Shown piece after piece: positions 39,338-50,570 of a stretch of DNA of 64,000 nucleotides. The notes under the pieces were generated by a model. That model saw only the letters and a program-made list of their open reading frames with translations. It was not told where the DNA came from and ran no database searches. How positions within the stretch are numbered: the first letter of the stretch is position 1; each line of letters starts with the position of its first letter. The stretch is from Wenyingzhuangia gilva (GTDB taxonomy: Bacteria; Bacteroidota; Bacteroidia; Flavobacteriales; Flavobacteriaceae): assembly GCF_030519655.1 (NCBI RefSeq), contig NZ_JAUMIT010000001.1:124001-188000 (forward strand). The letters are read 5' to 3'. The translations under genes and the position numbers were made by a program.

Positions 39338-41227
39338 TTAAAATTTATAATTGATGTTTAGGTTATAATTTCTTCCAGGCATAGGTCTTGAAACACTATA
39401 TAAATACAACTGATTAAAAATATTTTTAACCGCTAGTATAACATGTAAAGATTTGGTTCCTTTTTTTAACAACGAGACTCCTGCTCCTGCATTAAAAACA
39501 GTAAATGCATTTAACACTGCCCCGGGAGTGTCAATATTATCTTCTGTAGTATATACTTTACTCTGACTTAAATTCTGTGCATATGCTGTAAAAATATTAT
39601 TTTGATAATTTACAGTGGCATTAAATAAATGTCTAGGCACAAAAATGAGCTCTTTATTTGTCTCTGCATCTTTTGCCACAGTATAGATGTAATTTGTAGC
39701 AACATCAACAGAATGGTTTTTTGAAAAAGAATAACAAAATCCTCCAAAAAACTCAGCTCCTGTATGGAGAGATTCATTTAAGTTCATCGGTTTCCAAACT
39801 CCTGAATTATTATTTGGAGTCCAAATAATTTTGTTATCAACATTCATATAAAACAAAGTACTTTTAATTGTAAACCAATCATTTTTATATTGATAGCCTA
39901 CATCTACCTGTTTTGAATGTTCTGGAATTAAAGTTGTATTTCCTTGTCCTGGCCAATACAAATCATTTAGGGTAGGTACTCTGTAATTGGTTGAAATATT
40001 TAAAAGAATTTCATTTGTATCATTTAACGCATAATTGTTTCCCAAAGAAAAAACAGCAGGAACTGTAAAGGCAGAATTGAATTCTTTTTTTAGTTCTAAA
40101 TTATATCTCCATTGCTTAGTAAGAATAGAATTAAAACCCAACGCAAAAGCGTATTGTTCTCTTGTTTTTTCAGAAATTTGATTTGTTTTCCCTTTGATAT
40201 TTTGAAGATCTAAAAAGGCATTAATAGCGGTGTTTTTAGTTAGATGATATGTAAAATCATAATTAAACAACCATCTTTTTGACTTTCCGTAATCGTAATC
40301 TATATTGTTTTTATCACTAAAATATCGATATTCTTGAGTTAAAAACGCTGATTTAAAAACATGAGAAAACTGATTTTTCTGAACATCCCAAACTACTAAA
40401 TTACGCTGATTTAAATCTATATATTTTTCATTAGCTCCAGATGGATTTGGTAATTCTCCCGAAAACAATCTATCTCCTTTAAAACCGGTGGTATAAAAAC
40501 TTAACGAATTTCCTTCTGAAAACTGATATCCTACACTTAAATTCAATCCGTAATTTTCATAATCACCATTACTGTTTTTTAAATAATTACCATCTGTATC
40601 TTTATACCTATCGTCAATCAAATCATAATCATTATCAGATTTATTAAAATTTGCTCCTAGTTTTATTGCCCATGTTTCAGTTCCCAAATTGGTTTTGAAA
40701 AAATTAGAAGTCGTATTAAAACTTCCATAAGAACTAAACAATTGAAAGTTTTGATGTTTGTGAAAGTACAGATTATCGTTTGCATGGATAGAACCTCCAA
40801 TAGCCCCAGAACCATATTTTACAGAACCTCCTCCACTTTTAATTACAATTTCATCAGCAGTATTTAAAGACAAACTATTTAATCCTGTTTGTCCATTTCC
40901 AATAGCATTTACGTTAATTCCATTCCACAAAACAGCTGTGTTAGCTGCCGAAGTTCCTCTAAAACGAGCTGAGCTTGTCCCTCCATTTCCATAATCTCTA
41001 ATGGCTACTACAGAATTAAATCTTAAAGTTTCTGTTAGGTTTGTTGGGTTTTTTACAATATTCTCACCTGTTATAAGGGTAACTTTTTGACCAACTACAT
41101 TATTTCTTACATAAGAATCGGCCACAATGGTAACTTTACCCAAACGATTGATAGTATCATTTTGAGCTAAGGTTACAGCACACCAAAGCATGCTTATTAA
41201 AAAAAACGCATTACATAGTTTTATCAT
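39338..41227 (-). CDS. btuB: TonB-dependent vitamin B12 receptor, BtuB-like
   Basis: 629 residues with a signal peptide (~1-22). The plug domain (~30-145) has VTIVADSYVRNNVVGQKVT (early part, TonB-proximal) and the barrel runs to the final RNYNLNINYKF with its terminal Phe. No carboxypeptidase-like SusC extension is present; the length fits BtuB (~600). A cobalamin riboswitch lies directly upstream and a BtuG-like gene downstream, so the substrate is a corrinoid. Confidence 0.92.
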   Translation of the reverse strand: MIKLCNAFFLISMLWCAVTLAQNDTINRLGKVTIVADSYVRNNVVGQKVTLITGENIVKNPTNLTETLRFNSVVAIRDYGNGGTSSARFRGTSAANTAVLWNGINVNAIGNGQTGLNSLSLNTADEIVIKSGGGSVKYGSGAIGGSIHANDNLYFHKHQNFQLFSSYGSFNTTSNFFKTNLGTETWAIKLGANFNKSDNDYDLIDDRYKDTDGNYLKNSNGDYENYGLNLSVGYQFSEGNSLSFYTTGFKGDRLFSGELPNPSGANEKYIDLNQRNLVVWDVQKNQFSHVFKSAFLTQEYRYFSDKNNIDYDYGKSKRWLFNYDFTYHLTKNTAINAFLDLQNIKGKTNQISEKTREQYAFALGFNSILTKQWRYNLELKKEFNSAFTVPAVFSLGNNYALNDTNEILLNISTNYRVPTLNDLYWPGQGNTTLIPEHSKQVDVGYQYKNDWFTIKSTLFYMNVDNKIIWTPNNNSGVWKPMNLNESLHTGAEFFGGFCYSFSKNHSVDVATNYIYTVAKDAETNKELIFVPRHLFNATVNYQNNIFTAYAQNLSQSKVYTTEDNIDTPGAVLNAFTVFNAGAGVSLLKKGTKSLHVILAVKNIFNQLYLYSVSRPMPGRNYNLNINYKF

Positions 41228-45317: not shown

Positions 45318-46442
45318 ATGAAGTTTTTTACACCTCTATTTATTTTATGTACCCTTATTGCTTGTCAACCCAAGGCAACTAAAAAAACAGAAAACAAGGC
45401 TCTTATCAAACCAGAATTTGCCAAAGGATTTGTGTATGAAAAATACGAAAAATACATCAAGGCTATTGTAAAAACGCCATACAAAGGAGCCACAACTCCC
45501 TATGAATATATTATTATTAAAGGAGATACGGTTATCAAGCCAAGTCATGAAAATCAAATTGTGATTCATACTCCTTTAAAAAAAATAATCGCGACTTCTA
45601 CTACTCAAATCCCTGTTTTAGAAGCCCTAAAAAGTGAAACTTTATTAAAAGGATACCCAAACACAAAGTTTGTATCTTCTCCAAAAACAAGAGCTTTAAT
45701 TGACAATGGAAGTATTATTGATGTTGGACATGAAGAACATATGAATACCGAAATGGTTTTGGATATTCAGCCTGATATCTTATTTGCTTTTGCCGTGAAC
45801 AATGTGAACAAAAATTTTACGACTTTAAAAAAAGCTGGAATCCCAATTGTGATTGATGCTAGTTGGTTAGAAGAAACTCCTTTGGGTAGAGCAGAATGGA
45901 TTAAGTTTTTTGCCTTGTTTTTAAATCAAGAAAAAGAAGCCGATTTGGTGTTTCATCAAATTGTTGATAGTTATCAAAAAGCCTTAAAAACAATTCCTAA
46001 CAACATTAATAAGCCCAATGTTTTATACGGAGGAATTTACAATGATATTTGGTACACTCCTGCTGGAGATAGTTATGTAGCACAAATTATGAAAGATGCG
46101 GGAACTAATTATTATTGGCAAAACACAGAGAGCACAGGAAGTTTGGCTTTACAATTTGAAGAAGTATTTGTTAAAGCTAAAGATGCAGATTTTTGGTTTG
46201 CTCCTGGTTATGCTCTTGATAAAAAAGCCTTAGCAAACACCAATAAACACTACACAAGTTTTAAACCTTTTAGCACCAACAATATTTATACGTACACAAA
46301 TACTATTGGTGAGACTGGTGGACTAGTATTTTTTGAATTGGGTGCCTTAAGACCCGATTTAATTCTAAAAGATTTTATTAAAATTTGTCATCCAGAGTTG
46401 TTACCTAACTATGAAACTACTTTTTTTAAGAGGTTGGAATAA
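45318..46442 (+). CDS. BtuF-like substrate-binding lipoprotein
   Basis: 374 residues. Lipobox LIAC gives lipid Cys16. Fold of metal-chelate/B12-binding proteins: KKIIATSTTQIPVLEAL (~93), then IDVGHEEHMNTEMVLDIQPDILFAF with the core of the first lobe (~133-157), and TGGLVFFELGALRPDLIL at the end. It follows cobC by 2 bp, so it is the last gene of the cob operon and most likely binds corrinoid for an ABC importer whose permease and ATPase are not in the window. Its last ~49 bp recur 1560 bp downstream. Confidence 0.9.
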   Translation: MKFFTPLFILCTLIACQPKATKKTENKALIKPEFAKGFVYEKYEKYIKAIVKTPYKGATTPYEYIIIKGDTVIKPSHENQIVIHTPLKKIIATSTTQIPVLEALKSETLLKGYPNTKFVSSPKTRALIDNGSIIDVGHEEHMNTEMVLDIQPDILFAFAVNNVNKNFTTLKKAGIPIVIDASWLEETPLGRAEWIKFFALFLNQEKEADLVFHQIVDSYQKALKTIPNNINKPNVLYGGIYNDIWYTPAGDSYVAQIMKDAGTNYYWQNTESTGSLALQFEEVFVKAKDADFWFAPGYALDKKALANTNKHYTSFKPFSTNNIYTYTNTIGETGGLVFFELGALRPDLILKDFIKICHPELLPNYETTFFKRLE

Positions 46443-46443
46443 C
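46395..46443 (+). repeat. Direct repeat A: tail of the BtuF-like gene
   Basis: 49 bp beginning GAGTTGTTACCTAAC and coding the last residues of the lipoprotein (ELLPNYETTFFKRLE plus stop). It matches 47955-48003 at 43 of 49 positions by eye. The two copies bracket the RAYT/REP segment. Confidence 0.85.
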
Positions 46444-46461
46444 CTAGACTGTCCATCTTGT

Positions 46462-46601
46462 CTGGTGCTCGAATCCTTTCGAGGACCTTATTTATTCCTT
46501 CTGTTTCTTACAAAATTTAAAGACTTAATTTCTATATCTTGCAATAACTAGCGTTTGGAAACGCTAATTATGGTAATGGTACTCGAACATTCGAGCACCA
46601 G
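46462..46601. repeat. REP-type element 1, non-coding
   Basis: The ends are inverted repeats: CTGGTGCTCGAAT (46462-46474) and ATTCGAGCACCAG (46589-46601). Each end is itself a small hairpin (GCTCGAATCCTTTCGAG at the left; ACTCGAACATTCGAG at the right). A third hairpin GCGTTTGGAAACGC is at 46551-46564. The same three parts occur around the RAYT gene. The left flank CTTATTTATTCCTT is also shared with the element at 47180, so this looks like a deletion derivative. Confidence 0.8.
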
Positions 46602-46646
46602 AGGGGGCTAGTGGGGAGCATGCAAAATTTTATAGGTTTATTATAT

Positions 46647-47162
46647 TTATAGATGTTTTGTGTCAATAGACTCACAGATATTTCGTATTATTTTTAAAAA
46701 GTTCATAAACTCAGAGCTGTAAATTATTTTATGAGTATCGCTTCCAAGTATGACAACTTCTTTTTGGACAATATAACCATTTACAAAAAATAATATCTTT
46801 AATTCTGAGTAAGTTCCTATGTCTAAAAAACCTTTGTTTTTTATCCTATCTAATTCAATTTGCTTGTTTTTTGATTCAAAAAACATGTTAATATATTTCT
46901 TAATTTTTTCAACCTTTATTTTATTAATCAAAGTAGATTTTCCTTTAAGACTGTAATTATATATAGAATCATTTATAATACTAAATTTATATTCAAACAC
47001 TTTATTAGAGTCCCAATACTTTATCTGTATACTGTCCGAACTAATATCTCTTTTATGAGGGGTTCCTTCTAAAAATTTACTTTCGAAAAATTCAATATTA
47101 AATTGATATGAAAAGGTAAAAAACATTATTAATAAGCTTCTCATTGTTGTTGTTTTCTGCAT
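46647..47162 (-). CDS. Unknown protein inside the REP segment
   Basis: 171 residues. A hydrophobic N-terminal stretch (~8-20, RSLLIMFFTFSYQF) may be a signal peptide or anchor. The rest is rich in Lys, Ile and Asn with a beta-rich middle (KYWDSNKVFEYKFSIINDSIYNY). I recognise no family. It lies between REP element 1 and the left REP of the RAYT unit, and reads in the same direction as the transposase. It could be cargo or a pre-existing gene trapped by the insertion. Confidence 0.6.
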   Translation of the reverse strand: MQKTTTMRSLLIMFFTFSYQFNIEFFESKFLEGTPHKRDISSDSIQIKYWDSNKVFEYKFSIINDSIYNYSLKGKSTLINKIKVEKIKKYINMFFESKNKQIELDRIKNKGFLDIGTYSELKILFFVNGYIVQKEVVILGSDTHKIIYSSEFMNFLKIIRNICESIDTKHL

Positions 47163-47179
47163 TTATTTCCCTACTCACT

Positions 47180-47201
47180 CTGGTGCTCGAATCCTTTCGA
47201 G
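47180..47201. repeat. Left REP of the RAYT unit
   Basis: CTGGTGCTCGAATCCTTTCG plus AG, the same hairpin as the left end of element 1 and as 47851-47872. It lies 35 bp after the stop codon of the RAYT gene. Confidence 0.8.
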
Positions 47202-47235
47202 TGCCTTTATTATTCCTTTTGTTTTTAATAAAATT

Positions 47236-47793
47236 CTAATCAAACAAATTTGTAAGTATTATTCCTCCTTCATAACTTAAATCGTCAGCATAAAAATTAT
47301 AACTACTGTTTTTCCAATATTGTGGACTTGAAACAAATCCTTCGTCAACAGGATTCTTATGTATGTAATCTATTCGTTGATTTAATTTTTTTGAGGTATT
47401 TAAAATAATAGGATGAAATCCATCTTTCCAAACCTTATATTGGTTTGCCCTTTTGGTTCTATTTGCTTCATACGCAAACTTGGCCAATATCCATTCTCTC
47501 CTGCTTTCCCCTATATCTTGTATAGCTTCAATAATTTTTTTATTGGTATATCTTTTAAAATCTCTGACAATCTCTTGTATTTCATTTTTTACAGAAGTCA
47601 CAATTAAATGAATATGGCTTGTCATATAAACATAATAGTGAACTCTTAATCCTTTTTCTTTTTTACAAAATAACAAAGACTCATCAATAATACTCATATA
47701 GTTTTGTCTTGTTAAAATATCTGTCCACTGTACAAAAGTACAGCTTATAAAAGTTGGTACAGCACTATCTATTACTTTGTATTTTTCCGACAT
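47236..47793 (-). CDS. REP-associated tyrosine transposase (RAYT)
   Basis: 185 residues, single-domain Y1/HUH transposase (IS200/IS605-like fold). The metal-binding HUH motif is MTSHIHLIV with His60 and His62. The catalytic Tyr is probably Tyr143 in IDYIHKNPVDEGFV, a segment diagnostic of RAYTs. Family members cut and rejoin single-stranded DNA at REP hairpins and spread them through genomes. Here the gene is bracketed by matching hairpins at 47180 and 47851-47950. No frameshift or stop; it appears intact. ATG at 47793. Confidence 0.9.
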   Translation of the reverse strand: MSEKYKVIDSAVPTFISCTFVQWTDILTRQNYMSIIDESLLFCKKEKGLRVHYYVYMTSHIHLIVTSVKNEIQEIVRDFKRYTNKKIIEAIQDIGESRREWILAKFAYEANRTKRANQYKVWKDGFHPIILNTSKKLNQRIDYIHKNPVDEGFVSSPQYWKNSSYNFYADDLSYEGGIILTNLFD

Positions 47794-47850
47794 CGCTTTT
47801 TTGTTCTCAATTTAATAAAACTACATTAAGCTACAAAAAAGCAATATACG

Positions 47851-47950
47851 CTGGTGCTCGAATCTTTTCGAGTACTATTATAATGCTTGCCACACACTCG
47901 CGTTAGGAAACGCTAATTACAATAAAGGTACTCGAGTATTCGAGCACCAG
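47851..47950. repeat. REP-type element 2, right side of the RAYT unit
   Basis: Begins CTGGTGCTCGAAT (47851) and ends ATTCGAGCACCAG (47938-47950). The internal hairpin GCGTTAGGAAACGC is at 47900-47913, differing from element 1 by one base in the stem-loop. It lies upstream of the RAYT gene and 4 bp before direct repeat B. Confidence 0.8.
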
Positions 47951-47954
47951 AGGG

Positions 47955-48003
47955 GAGTTGTTACCTAACGATGAAACTACTTTTTTTAAAAAACTAGAAT
48001 AAC
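47955..48003 (+). repeat. Direct repeat B: second copy of the BtuF-like gene tail
   Basis: Still encodes ELLPNDETTFFKKLE and a stop in the plus direction, but with no gene attached. It includes the stop codon of the convergent parC (TAG, minus strand, 47996-47994). The changes from copy A are at six positions, mostly in the last 15 bp. Confidence 0.85.
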
Positions 48004-50570
48004 GTTGGCTGATCTCCATTAATCTCCTTTTCGTCCTCTACTTCAATATCATTTTCAGCAGGGCTATAAGGAGAAGGTTCTAATCTATTCACCAATTTAA
48101 TTTTATCATCAGTTAATTGGTTTCCTAAAGCTTTAATTCCTTTTACAGCAATAAAATCTTCTAAATCAATAACCAAATTCTCAAGATTACGTTTGCTAAA
48201 TACCACCTCAACATTAGGTCTATAATCGGTCACTACAATTTGTAATTGTGTTTTTGGATGTTCACTAATAAAAAACTCTTCCTTGTCTGGATGATCTATC
48301 ACAAAACGTTTTACGTAATATTTTTCTTTTTCCCCTTCATAATAAATAGCAGAAATAGGTTTGTTTGGTTCCCATTTTTCTAGCACTACCATGTCATCTT
48401 CAAAATGTGTGGTTAAAGCTGGAGTAATGGTTTTTATTTTTCCAGATTGTGTAGCAACTAACAATTTATCTTTGGCTGTAAATTCTCCTAACAACTCTCC
48501 TCTTCCATCAACATTTAAACGTTGTACAGTATCATCAAACCATATTTTACGTGGTTTTAAAGTAGAAGTTCCAGCAGATTTAAACTCAATTTTCTTGACA
48601 GGATACTTGGTAATTAAGTTCCCTTTTGAAGAACGTCCTTTAATCATTAAATCCGAAAAATCTATATCCCATTTTAATTTCTTTAACCCGGCCAATGGTT
48701 TTAATTCTACAGAAACCGTTTCTGCTTCTCCATTAGGATTGGCAGTAAAATACCAAACTACAGAACCTTTGTTTCCAGCTGTTAAGTCGTACTCTTTATC
48801 TCTGGTTATACTCGTTACATTAAAACGTTTCATATAACTTGGACCAGAACGACCATCACGATACATCATGTTATAAATAGTACGCTTGTCTCCTTTTTTA
48901 AAGATGGCTACATGAATAATATCTTTACCAACAAAGGTTTTTTGAGCCACTTTACTTACGATCATGGTTCCATCTTTTCGGAATACAATTACGTCATCTA
49001 TGTCTGCACAATCCGCTACAAACTCATCTCTTTTTAAAGAAGTACCCACAAAACCTTCAGTTCTATTTACGTATAATTTTTCGTTACGCATTACCACTTT
49101 GGTTGCTTCAATATCATCAAAAGTTCTAATTTCTGTCATACGAGGTTTTTCTTTCCCGTATTTTTCTTTTAAACTCTTAAAATAATCAATAGCAAACTCT
49201 ATTAAGTTCTCTAAATGATGTTGCACTTGAGCAATTTCATCTTCTAAACTTTCAATAATTTGTTTGGCTTTGTCGATATCAAACTTAGAAATTCGCTTGA
49301 TTCTAATTTCTGTTAAACGAACAATATCTTCTTCTGTAATGGCTCTTTTTAAATGTGATATATGTGGCTTTAATCCCTTATCAATAGCAGAAATGACTCC
49401 TTCCCACGTACTTTCTTCTTCAATATCACGATAGATTCTATTTTCTATAAAAATACGTTCCAAAGAAGCAAAATGCCATTTTTCTTGCAACTCACCTAAC
49501 TGAATTTCTAATTCACGTTTTAACAAGTGTAAAGTATTATTGGTTGATATTTTCAAAATATCAGAAACTCCAATAAACACAGGTTTATGATCTTGAATAA
49601 CGCAACACAAAGGAGAAATAGACACTTCACAATTGGTAAAAGCAAATAAAGCATCAATGGTTTTATCTGGTGATACTCCTGGTGGTAAGTGAATTAAAAT
49701 CTCAACGTTTCTAGCAGTATTATCCTCTATTTGTTTGATTTTAATTTTCCCTTTATCGTTTGCTTTTAGTATGGATTCTATTAAAGTTGAAGTGGTAGTT
49801 CCGAATGGAATTTCGTTTACCACTAAAGTTTTTTTATCTAACTGAGAAATTTTTGCTCTCACTCTTACTTTTCCTCCTCTGGTACCATCGTTATAATTGG
49901 TAACATCAATTACTCCTCCAGTTAAAAAATCTGGAAATAAAGTAAAGCTTCTTCCTCTTAATATTTTAATCGAAGCATCTATCAGTTCATTAAAGTTGTG
50001 TGGTAATATTTTGGTTGATAACCCTACTGCAATTCCCTCACCTCCTTGTGCCAATAGCATTGGAAATTTTACAGGTAAATTAATAGGTTCTTTTCTACGA
50101 CCATCATAAGAAGCTTGCCAATCGGTAGTTTTTGGATTAAAAACTACTTCTAAAGCAAACTTAGACAAACGGGCTTCTATGTAACGAGCTGCTGCTGCTC
50201 GGTCTCCTGTAAGAATATTCCCCCAGTTCCCTTGCATGTCTATCAACAATTCTTTCTGACCAATTTGTACCATGGCATCAGAAATAGAAGCATCACCATG
50301 AGGATGATACTGCATACAGTGTCCTACTAAGTTGGCTACTTTGTTGTAACGTCCATCATCTAAGTCTTTCATAGATTGCATAATACGTCTTTGCACAGGT
50401 TTAAAACCGTCTGCAATGGCTGGTACTGCACGTTCTAAGATTACGTAAGAAGCATAGTCTAAAAACCACTCTTTGTACATTCCTGTAACTTTGGTAATGG
50501 TCTCTTGACTTTCTACCGGTTTATGATTTTCAAATTCGTTTTCTTCTTGCTTGTTGATGTCGTCTTGCAT
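47994..50570 (-). CDS. parC: DNA topoisomerase IV subunit A
   Basis: 858 residues. The winged-helix and tower region has the catalytic Tyr130 in AAAARYIEARL. Upstream is the helix MQYHPHGDASISDAMV (~86-101). A coiled coil at ~430-470 and a C-terminal beta-pinwheel with degenerate repeats follow. It cuts and rejoins DNA to separate daughter chromosomes. parE lies 62 bp upstream on the same strand. Its stop codon lies inside direct repeat B. Confidence 0.92.
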   Translation of the reverse strand: MQDDINKQEENEFENHKPVESQETITKVTGMYKEWFLDYASYVILERAVPAIADGFKPVQRRIMQSMKDLDDGRYNKVANLVGHCMQYHPHGDASISDAMVQIGQKELLIDMQGNWGNILTGDRAAAARYIEARLSKFALEVVFNPKTTDWQASYDGRRKEPINLPVKFPMLLAQGGEGIAVGLSTKILPHNFNELIDASIKILRGRSFTLFPDFLTGGVIDVTNYNDGTRGGKVRVRAKISQLDKKTLVVNEIPFGTTTSTLIESILKANDKGKIKIKQIEDNTARNVEILIHLPPGVSPDKTIDALFAFTNCEVSISPLCCVIQDHKPVFIGVSDILKISTNNTLHLLKRELEIQLGELQEKWHFASLERIFIENRIYRDIEEESTWEGVISAIDKGLKPHISHLKRAITEEDIVRLTEIRIKRISKFDIDKAKQIIESLEDEIAQVQHHLENLIEFAIDYFKSLKEKYGKEKPRMTEIRTFDDIEATKVVMRNEKLYVNRTEGFVGTSLKRDEFVADCADIDDVIVFRKDGTMIVSKVAQKTFVGKDIIHVAIFKKGDKRTIYNMMYRDGRSGPSYMKRFNVTSITRDKEYDLTAGNKGSVVWYFTANPNGEAETVSVELKPLAGLKKLKWDIDFSDLMIKGRSSKGNLITKYPVKKIEFKSAGTSTLKPRKIWFDDTVQRLNVDGRGELLGEFTAKDKLLVATQSGKIKTITPALTTHFEDDMVVLEKWEPNKPISAIYYEGEKEKYYVKRFVIDHPDKEEFFISEHPKTQLQIVVTDYRPNVEVVFSKRNLENLVIDLEDFIAVKGIKALGNQLTDDKIKLVNRLEPSPYSPAENDIEVEDEKEINGDQPTLF

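What the first reader, a model, noticed from the sequence alone, without database searches (positions are those of the whole stretch)
46395..48003. RAYT/REP segment inserted at a gene junction with a duplicated gene tail
Two copies of a 49-bp stretch (43/49 identical by eye, exactly 1560 bp apart) flank a RAYT transposase, three REP-type hairpin sets and an unknown ORF. Copy A is the real 3' end of the BtuF-like gene; copy B still encodes ELLPNDETTFFKKLE with a stop but has no gene, and overlaps the parC stop codon. The simplest reading is that the BtuF-like gene and parC once converged directly and that the segment came in with duplication of the junction. RAYTs are not known to make long target duplications, so the mechanism would be unusual (repair-coupled duplication or recombination between copies).
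Basis: partly seen in the sequence, partly recalled or inferred. Interest (0 to 1): 0.75.

Follow-up and report, generated by a model that had tools for sequence, protein, structure and literature searches.

The report
Gene-tail duplication at a REP/RAYT element
A small transposase-like element sits between two genes of a marine bacterium with a spare copy of one gene's last stretch beside it, and similar spare gene ends lie right at the ends of such elements in several related bacteria, which points to a little-known way these elements rearrange DNA.

Summary
Two 49-bp copies (43/49 identical; 57 bp at 84%) lie 1560 bp apart around a RAYT gene, REP hairpins and an orphan ORF. A 35-nt core of the tail (up to 3 mismatches) occurs only twice in the genome. 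The genus is that of Wenyingzhuangia marina. Two congeners have one btuF–parC junction and no insert. W. marina has hairpins, orphan ORF and a decayed second tail, but no RAYT match, so the duplication cannot simply be credited to arrival of the RAYT gene.

Main new result: the spare tail begins at the outer end of a REP hairpin. By eye, the same REP-end|gene-tail joint occurs at 9 loci (13 joints) in 8 Flavobacteriaceae genera: 5 loci with a host-gene tail, 4 with the RAYT's own tail. Gene tails with a second copy nearby: 13 of 300 at RAYT loci, 0 of 224 at other loci; for host genes without the window only 5 of 224 versus 0 of 215 (p=0.06). At some loci the two tails look like alleles of different lineages, against simple target-site duplication. 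Best reading: the REP end is a preferred breakpoint joined to a nearby gene tail, often with recombination. New variant of "insertion with long target duplication"; the chemistry is inferred.

The parts
45318..46442 (+). BtuF-like periplasmic binding protein gene; its last 48 nt are copy A
   Evidence: ORF; Pfam Peripla_BP_2 E 3.2e-17
46395..46451 (+). Copy A: real 3' end of the BtuF-like gene plus 9 bp
46461..46606 (.). E1: short element without a gene, with both ends of the RAYT element (hairpins at each end), MITE/REPIN-like
   Evidence: families D1-D4; folds
46647..47162 (-). Orphan ORF (171 aa); only strong homologue found is in G001 (88%); 36 of 516 nt differ, spread 13/11/12 over codon positions, so no sign of coding constraint
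47179..47955 (.). E2: RAYT element, bounded by CTGGTGCTCGAAT... and ...ATTCGAGCACCAGAGGGG
47236..47793 (-). RAYT (TnpA-REP type Y1 HUH transposase) gene, the only match in the genome
   Evidence: NF047646 77.3 bits (cut-off 80); PDB 4er8 TnpArep E 0.0047
47896..47955 (.). Hairpins whose outer end (CACCAGAGGGG) abuts copy B
47955..48011 (+). Copy B: orphan btuF tail fused to the native parC end
47994..50570 (-). parC (topoisomerase IV subunit A), 3' end overlapping copy B
   Evidence: Pfam DNA_topoisoIV E 4.1e-111

Best explanation
A REP/RAYT segment entered the convergent btuF–parC junction of a Wenyingzhuangia ancestor by an event in which one border is the outer end of a REP hairpin and the partner is the 3' tail of the neighbouring gene. 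The order is: real tail – stop – element – REP end | partial tail – native downstream, which leaves both genes intact. The same joint was seen at 8 other Flavobacteriaceae RAYT loci, so the REP outer end is a recurrent breakpoint (shown by sequence). Inferred: the RAYT cuts single-stranded DNA just outside the hairpin, or replication stalls there, and the freed REP end is joined to, or primes within, a gene end 23-90 nt before its stop codon, with little or no homology. The rest is copied from, or recombined with, a homologous and sometimes foreign element-free copy of the locus. Later exchange, loss (or never gain) of the RAYT in W. marina and possible re-copying of tail A into B in this lineage give the present mosaic.
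For: Single junction without insert in G003 and G004; insert plus two tails in G000 and G001. The spare tail abuts the REP outer end at WIN, L082, L110, L118, L053 (host genes) and at L159 x4, L177 x2, L178, L175 (RAYT's own tail): 13 joints, 9 loci, 8 genera. Gene tails with a second copy within 3 kb: 13 of 300 (12 of 76 RAYT loci) versus 0 of 224 (57 other loci; 0 of 215 after dropping 3 overlapping loci), p about 0.001. Relatives with no element in the sequence shown: G416 at comM; G257, G419, G008, G420 at the L110 gene; G453 at the L118 gene; G169 and G461 at the L053 gene. Two-lineage signature: L053 real tail reads FSKQM like G169, orphan FARQM like G461; L110 coding tail 43/45 identical, both changes synonymous, against 44/65 in the adjoining UTR and terminator. 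Published in vitro work: TnpA-REP cuts 5' and 3' of REP stem-loops, and a strand-transfer assay maps the cuts (PMC8266576, passages).
Against: The enrichment rests partly on RAYT's own tails, which cannot occur at control loci: for host-gene tails it is 6 of 225 versus 0 of 215 (p 0.03), without the window 5 of 224 (p 0.06), and counting only REP-joint cases without the window 4 of 224 (p 0.12). Control loci were mostly shorter and not matched for REPs. Joints were judged by eye. Four of the 12 flagged loci (L088, L093, L097, L107) show no clear REP end at the joint, nor do L120 and the comM copy in G122. L082 (93% over tail and UTR alike) fits in-situ or tandem duplication. W. marina has no RAYT match. 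No activity of this RAYT was tested. The window tails differ at only 6 of 49 sites, so their history is weakly resolved; G003 as outgroup has 66% bootstrap.
Confidence: 0.5

Rival explanations
1. Ordinary insertion with an unusually long target-site duplication (57 bp here): staggered cuts far apart on the two strands, filled in, then neutral divergence of the two copies.
For: Direct repeats flank the insert and element-free junctions exist. In the window A and B share TTG/CCT/AAC against TTA/CCA in G001 and G003. L082 copies are 93% alike throughout.
Against: IS200/IS605 relatives make no larger target duplications (PMC2817692 passage). Real and orphan tails at L053 and L110 differ like alleles of different lineages. 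Coding matches vary from 23 to 90 nt.
Confidence: 0.2
2. Local tandem duplication by replication slippage at REP hairpins (unit = gene tail + REP), followed by loss of parts; RAYT protein not needed.
For: Tandem [RAYT tail + REP] arrays in G417 and G278; in G278 a genome search found all 6 matches within 1.8 kb. L082's second tail is followed by a short REP start. REPIN clusters that repeat flanks are known (PMC3116915 passages).
Against: In the window copy B runs straight into native parC with no REP remnant; none was seen right after the orphan tail at L110, L118 and L053 either.
Confidence: 0.15
3. Recombination with incoming relative DNA (homology-assisted illegitimate recombination in transformation) carries the element in as passive cargo; the REP end is incidental.
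For: comM tail duplication with a different cargo and no REP at the joint in G122, whose two tails by eye resemble different congeners. The orphan ORF differs at 36 of 516 nt between G000 and G001 against 33% at fourfold sites of btuF+parC, suggesting exchange.
Against: At 9 loci the joint lies within about 4-10 nt of the REP stem, which a passive cargo would not need.
Confidence: 0.22

Closest known systems
Insertion with long and variable target duplication of restriction-modification genes (Nobusato et al. 2000, seen in reference lists only; described in PMC3031569 passages, and PMC4978471 passages)
   Same: Genes sit between long direct repeats made from the target, inferred by comparing related genomes.
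   Different: There the cargo is R-M genes and no REP or RAYT is named in the passages seen; here one border is a REP outer end and the repeat is a gene 3' end.
RAYT / TnpA-REP elements, Bacteroidetes subclass 2.6 (PMC6006769, passages and section 25)
   Same: Small Y1 HUH protein flanked by hairpins; Bacteroidetes.
   Different: Motifs here are SHIH, WK, YIHKNP against NH[LIV]H, WQ, YIH[QN]NP in their table; they report hairpin copies elsewhere in the genome, here none were found in the one orientation searched; gene-tail duplication is not mentioned in the passages seen.
Tandem REPIN clusters including flanks in Pseudomonas fluorescens (PMC3116915, 12 of 24 passages)
   Same: REP units repeated together with flanking sequence.
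   Different: The passages seen do not tie the flank to a gene's 3' end or the border to the REP outer end, nor describe insertion at a gene junction.
IS200/IS605 insertion sequences
   Same: Y1 transposase relatives (NF033573 E 0.0016, below its cut-off).
   Different: They do not make larger target duplications (PMC2817692 passage).

Membership tests
RAYT / TnpA-REP | Similarity to the curated REP-associated tyrosine transposase model | tested here: inconclusive
   NF047646 77.3 bits, E 1e-21, just under the cut-off of 80; no Pfam Y1 transposase hit at E<=1; PDB 4er8 TnpArep E 0.0047
RAYT / TnpA-REP | HUH motif and catalytic Tyr context (YIxxNP) | tested here: met
   Translation holds SHIHLIV and YIHKNPVDEGFV; read by eye against the table
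RAYT / TnpA-REP | Gene flanked by inverted hairpins | tested here: met
   Hairpins on both sides, inverted arms
RAYT / TnpA-REP | REP copies elsewhere in the genome | tested here: not met
   Three matches in G000, all at this locus, 24-nt pattern with up to 3 mismatches; hairpins with the other loop were not searched genome-wide
Insertion with long target duplication | Long direct repeats from the target flank the insert, and an element-free site exists | tested here: met
Insertion with long target duplication | Cargo is a restriction-modification system | tested here: not met
   No PADLOC hit for either ORF at E<=0.1; RAYT and orphan ORF only
IS200/IS605 | No larger target duplication on insertion | tested here: not met
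   57-bp duplication around the insert

The most novel reading that the evidence does not exclude
RAYT proteins of Flavobacteriaceae actively join REP outer ends to nearby gene 3' ends on single-stranded DNA. They would act as a duplication-making machine that splices spare gene tails (some with terminators) next to REPs and lets elements enter gene ends harmlessly, an outcome that I did not find described for any Y1 transposase in the searches named in the report.
Probability: 0.2. Interest if true: 0.82.

Novelty: new variant of a known kind. Interest (0 to 1): 0.58.

Why it matters
How REP elements and RAYTs spread is poorly understood (so stated in the abstract of PMC8266576, listing). A fixed joint between the REP outer end and a gene tail is a concrete, countable product that can be tested in vitro and in genomes. 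It would also explain how REPs come to sit behind gene ends without breaking genes, and it links RAYTs to the class of insertions with long target duplication, whose mechanism is unexplained to my knowledge.

Tried and rejected
Dispersed repeat: rejected, only two matches of the 35-nt core in the genome. Misassembly: unlikely, since the copies differ and W. marina has a matching arrangement in a separate assembly. Tail copies at L105 and L102 look like tandem RAYT paralogues and that at L055 is a REP; not counted as gene tails. L084 and L038 repeats look like paralogous coding stretches. L042 and L092 repeats are terminator-like and may be chance. Other direct repeats at RAYT loci (for example L033, L041, L044, L048, L049, L059, L115) hold REP-like or other repeated sequence and were not resolved. 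A mobile [RAYT tail + REP] unit in G278: its 6 matches all lie within 1.8 kb, so it looks local. The orphan ORF has no convincing family: Pfam none at E<=1, PADLOC none, NCBIfam E 0.025, PHROGs E 0.0074. No structure was predicted. Paper searches showed no description of this joint; I saw listings with starts of abstracts, and passages of the papers named in the report; only open-licence PMC text is held.

Full report
Observation. The two stretches are real: 46395-46443 and 47955-48003 match at 43 of 49 positions, and at 84% over 57 bp with a spacing of 1560. Copy A ends the BtuF-like gene and copy B overlaps the 3' end of parC. Of 53 gene tails scanned in the window this is the only one with a second copy within 3 kb. 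A 35-nt core pattern allowing 3 mismatches matches only these two places in G000 and none in G001 or G003.

Anatomy. Between the copies lie two elements with like ends: a short one without a gene (46461-46606) and one with the RAYT gene (47179-47955; RAYT 47236-47793, minus). Their left 57 bp are 86% alike and right 60 bp 87% alike. Five hairpin stretches fold well below shuffles. An orphan ORF (46647-47162, minus) lies between the elements. The RAYT matches NF047646 at 77.3 bits, just under its cut-off of 80, and solved TnpArep 4er8 at E 0.0047. It is the only match in the genome at E<=0.001. A 24-nt hairpin pattern (one loop type, up to 3 mismatches) matched three places in G000, all here.

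Relatives. Of seven genomes of the genus (own included), six have the btuF gene. G003 and G004 have a single btuF–parC junction. In G004 the two genes overlap in the same way as at copy B; in G003 the stops are two bases apart. G002 and G006 hold about 4.3 kb with three ORFs of 90 aa or more between the genes. G005 (85% complete) has no btuF hit. G001 has the orphan ORF, hairpins, a decayed and frame-shifted copy B and a CGTTGGCTG parC remnant after its copy A, but no RAYT match. So direct convergence is the likely ancestral state, and the insert with duplication is shared with W. marina while the RAYT gene is not.

Dating. Fourfold sites of btuF+parC differ at 133 of 403 (33%) between G000 and G001. 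The orphan ORF differs at 36 of 516 nt, evenly over codon positions; by 200-column blocks the insert is 0.94, 0.98 and 0.85 identical. The insert is thus younger than the split or was exchanged after it, and shows no coding constraint. In 397 family genomes the ORF had strong matches only in G000 and G001; 10 more genomes gave weak ones, E 2.8e-5 to 0.009. Copy B of G000 shares TTG, CCT and AAC with its own copy A where G001 and G003 have TTA, CCA and GAT/AAT, but its end (CTAGAATAACG) is of the overlapping G004 type, which suggests a mosaic. One difference in 35 nt where about 7 would be expected gives P about 0.007, or 0.04 if 5 are expected; but the stretch was chosen after seeing the data and the tree has 66% support, so this is only suggestive.

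Recurrence. Of 397 family genomes 103 have a RAYT match at E<=1e-10. I examined 76 RAYT loci, window and G417 included; the choice was not random, some genomes gave two loci, and G417 came in through comM. A scan for second copies of gene tails within 3 kb (reaching the stop, not whole paralogues, not hairpins) flagged 13 of 300 tails at 12 of 76 loci, and 0 of 224 tails at 57 loci not chosen for RAYT; Fisher p 0.0009 and 0.0012. The 57 hold no RAYT match, but three of them overlap three others; without these it is 0 of 215, p 0.001. They are mostly shorter than the RAYT loci, were not matched for REPs, and include W. marina's own decayed copy, which the scan did not see. RAYT's own tails cannot occur there. 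For other tails it is 6 of 225 against 0 of 215 (p 0.03), 5 of 224 without the window (p 0.06), and 4 of 224 counting only REP-joint cases without the window (p 0.12). The enrichment alone is therefore modest; the position of the joint is the stronger evidence.

The joint. At 8 of the 12 flagged loci, and at L175 (seen, not kept by the filters), the spare tail begins at the outer end of a REP, about 4-10 nt past the stem by eye. These are the window (btuF), L082 (comM-like, 132 bp at 93%), L110 (protease-like gene), L118 (200-aa gene), L053 (end of an 841-codon frame), and the RAYT's own tail in L159 (four joints), L177 (two), L178 and L175. That is 13 joints, 9 loci and 8 genera (L082 and L159 share one). 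In the eight joints tabulated against the real tail, no base before the anchor was shared in seven and three in the window (anchors set by eye). L088, L093, L097 and L107 show no clear REP at the joint. L120 and the comM tail in G122 are tail duplications without a REP at the joint. No element was seen, in the sequence printed, at comM in G416, at the L110 gene in G257, G419, G008 and G420, at the L118 gene in G453, or at the L053 gene in G169 and G461. The names comM, protease and the like are recalled from the sequences and were not tested.

Origin of the two tails. At L053 the real tail encodes FSKQM as in G169 and the orphan FARQM as in G461. At L110 the coding part is 43/45 identical with two synonymous changes, against 44/65 in the adjoining UTR and terminator. 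At L118 the two terminators differ by at least one paired change, by eye. In G122 the comM copies resemble different congeners, by eye. These fit copies from two lineages better than one in-situ duplication. L082 does not show this and carries a short REP start after its second tail, which fits tandem duplication.

Mechanism. Shown: REP outer ends are a recurrent border of gene-tail duplications near RAYTs. Inferred: the REP end is freed by RAYT cutting (TnpA-REP cuts both sides of REPs in vitro, mapped with a strand-transfer assay; PMC8266576, 12 of 42 passages) or by hairpin-stalled replication, joins a nearby gene end with little homology, and is completed by copying or recombination with an element-free homologue. 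Transformation-driven partial duplications are known in Streptococcus pneumoniae (PMC3784515, abstract and outline).

Known kinds. Insertion with long and variable target duplication is described for R-M genes (PMC3031569 passages). Tandem REPINs that repeat flanks are described in Pseudomonas (PMC3116915, 12 of 24 passages). IS200/IS605 elements make no larger target duplications (PMC2817692 passage). I found no description of the REP-end|gene-tail joint in searches, which cover open-licence PMC only.

Noticed in passing
btuF-parC junction of G002 (L078) and G006 (L079): The same junction holds a 4.3-kb block with a 626-aa, a 291-296-aa and a 472-aa ORF in two congeners, so it looks like an insertion-prone site.
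   Followed up: partly
L160/L128 (G122), downstream of comM: A different, repeat-rich cargo ORF sits before a second comM tail with no REP at the joint; by eye a third, shorter tail-like fragment follows the real comM stop.
   Followed up: partly
L159 (G417), after the RAYT gene: Four head-to-tail units of RAYT tail (65, 33, 33, 23 nt) plus REP, a small array growing from the RAYT's own 3' end.
   Followed up: partly
46778-46978: This part of the orphan ORF is 98% identical to W. marina although fourfold sites of neighbouring genes differ by 33%.
   Followed up: partly
L006:2730-2944: Cobalamin riboswitch (RF00174, 102.3 bits) beside the btuF homologue of G004.
   Followed up: yes
L029/L073 (G005:C141 around 39491-39725): A broken RAYT (64% identical stretch with 3 stops) next to the same kind of hairpin in a congener.
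   Followed up: no
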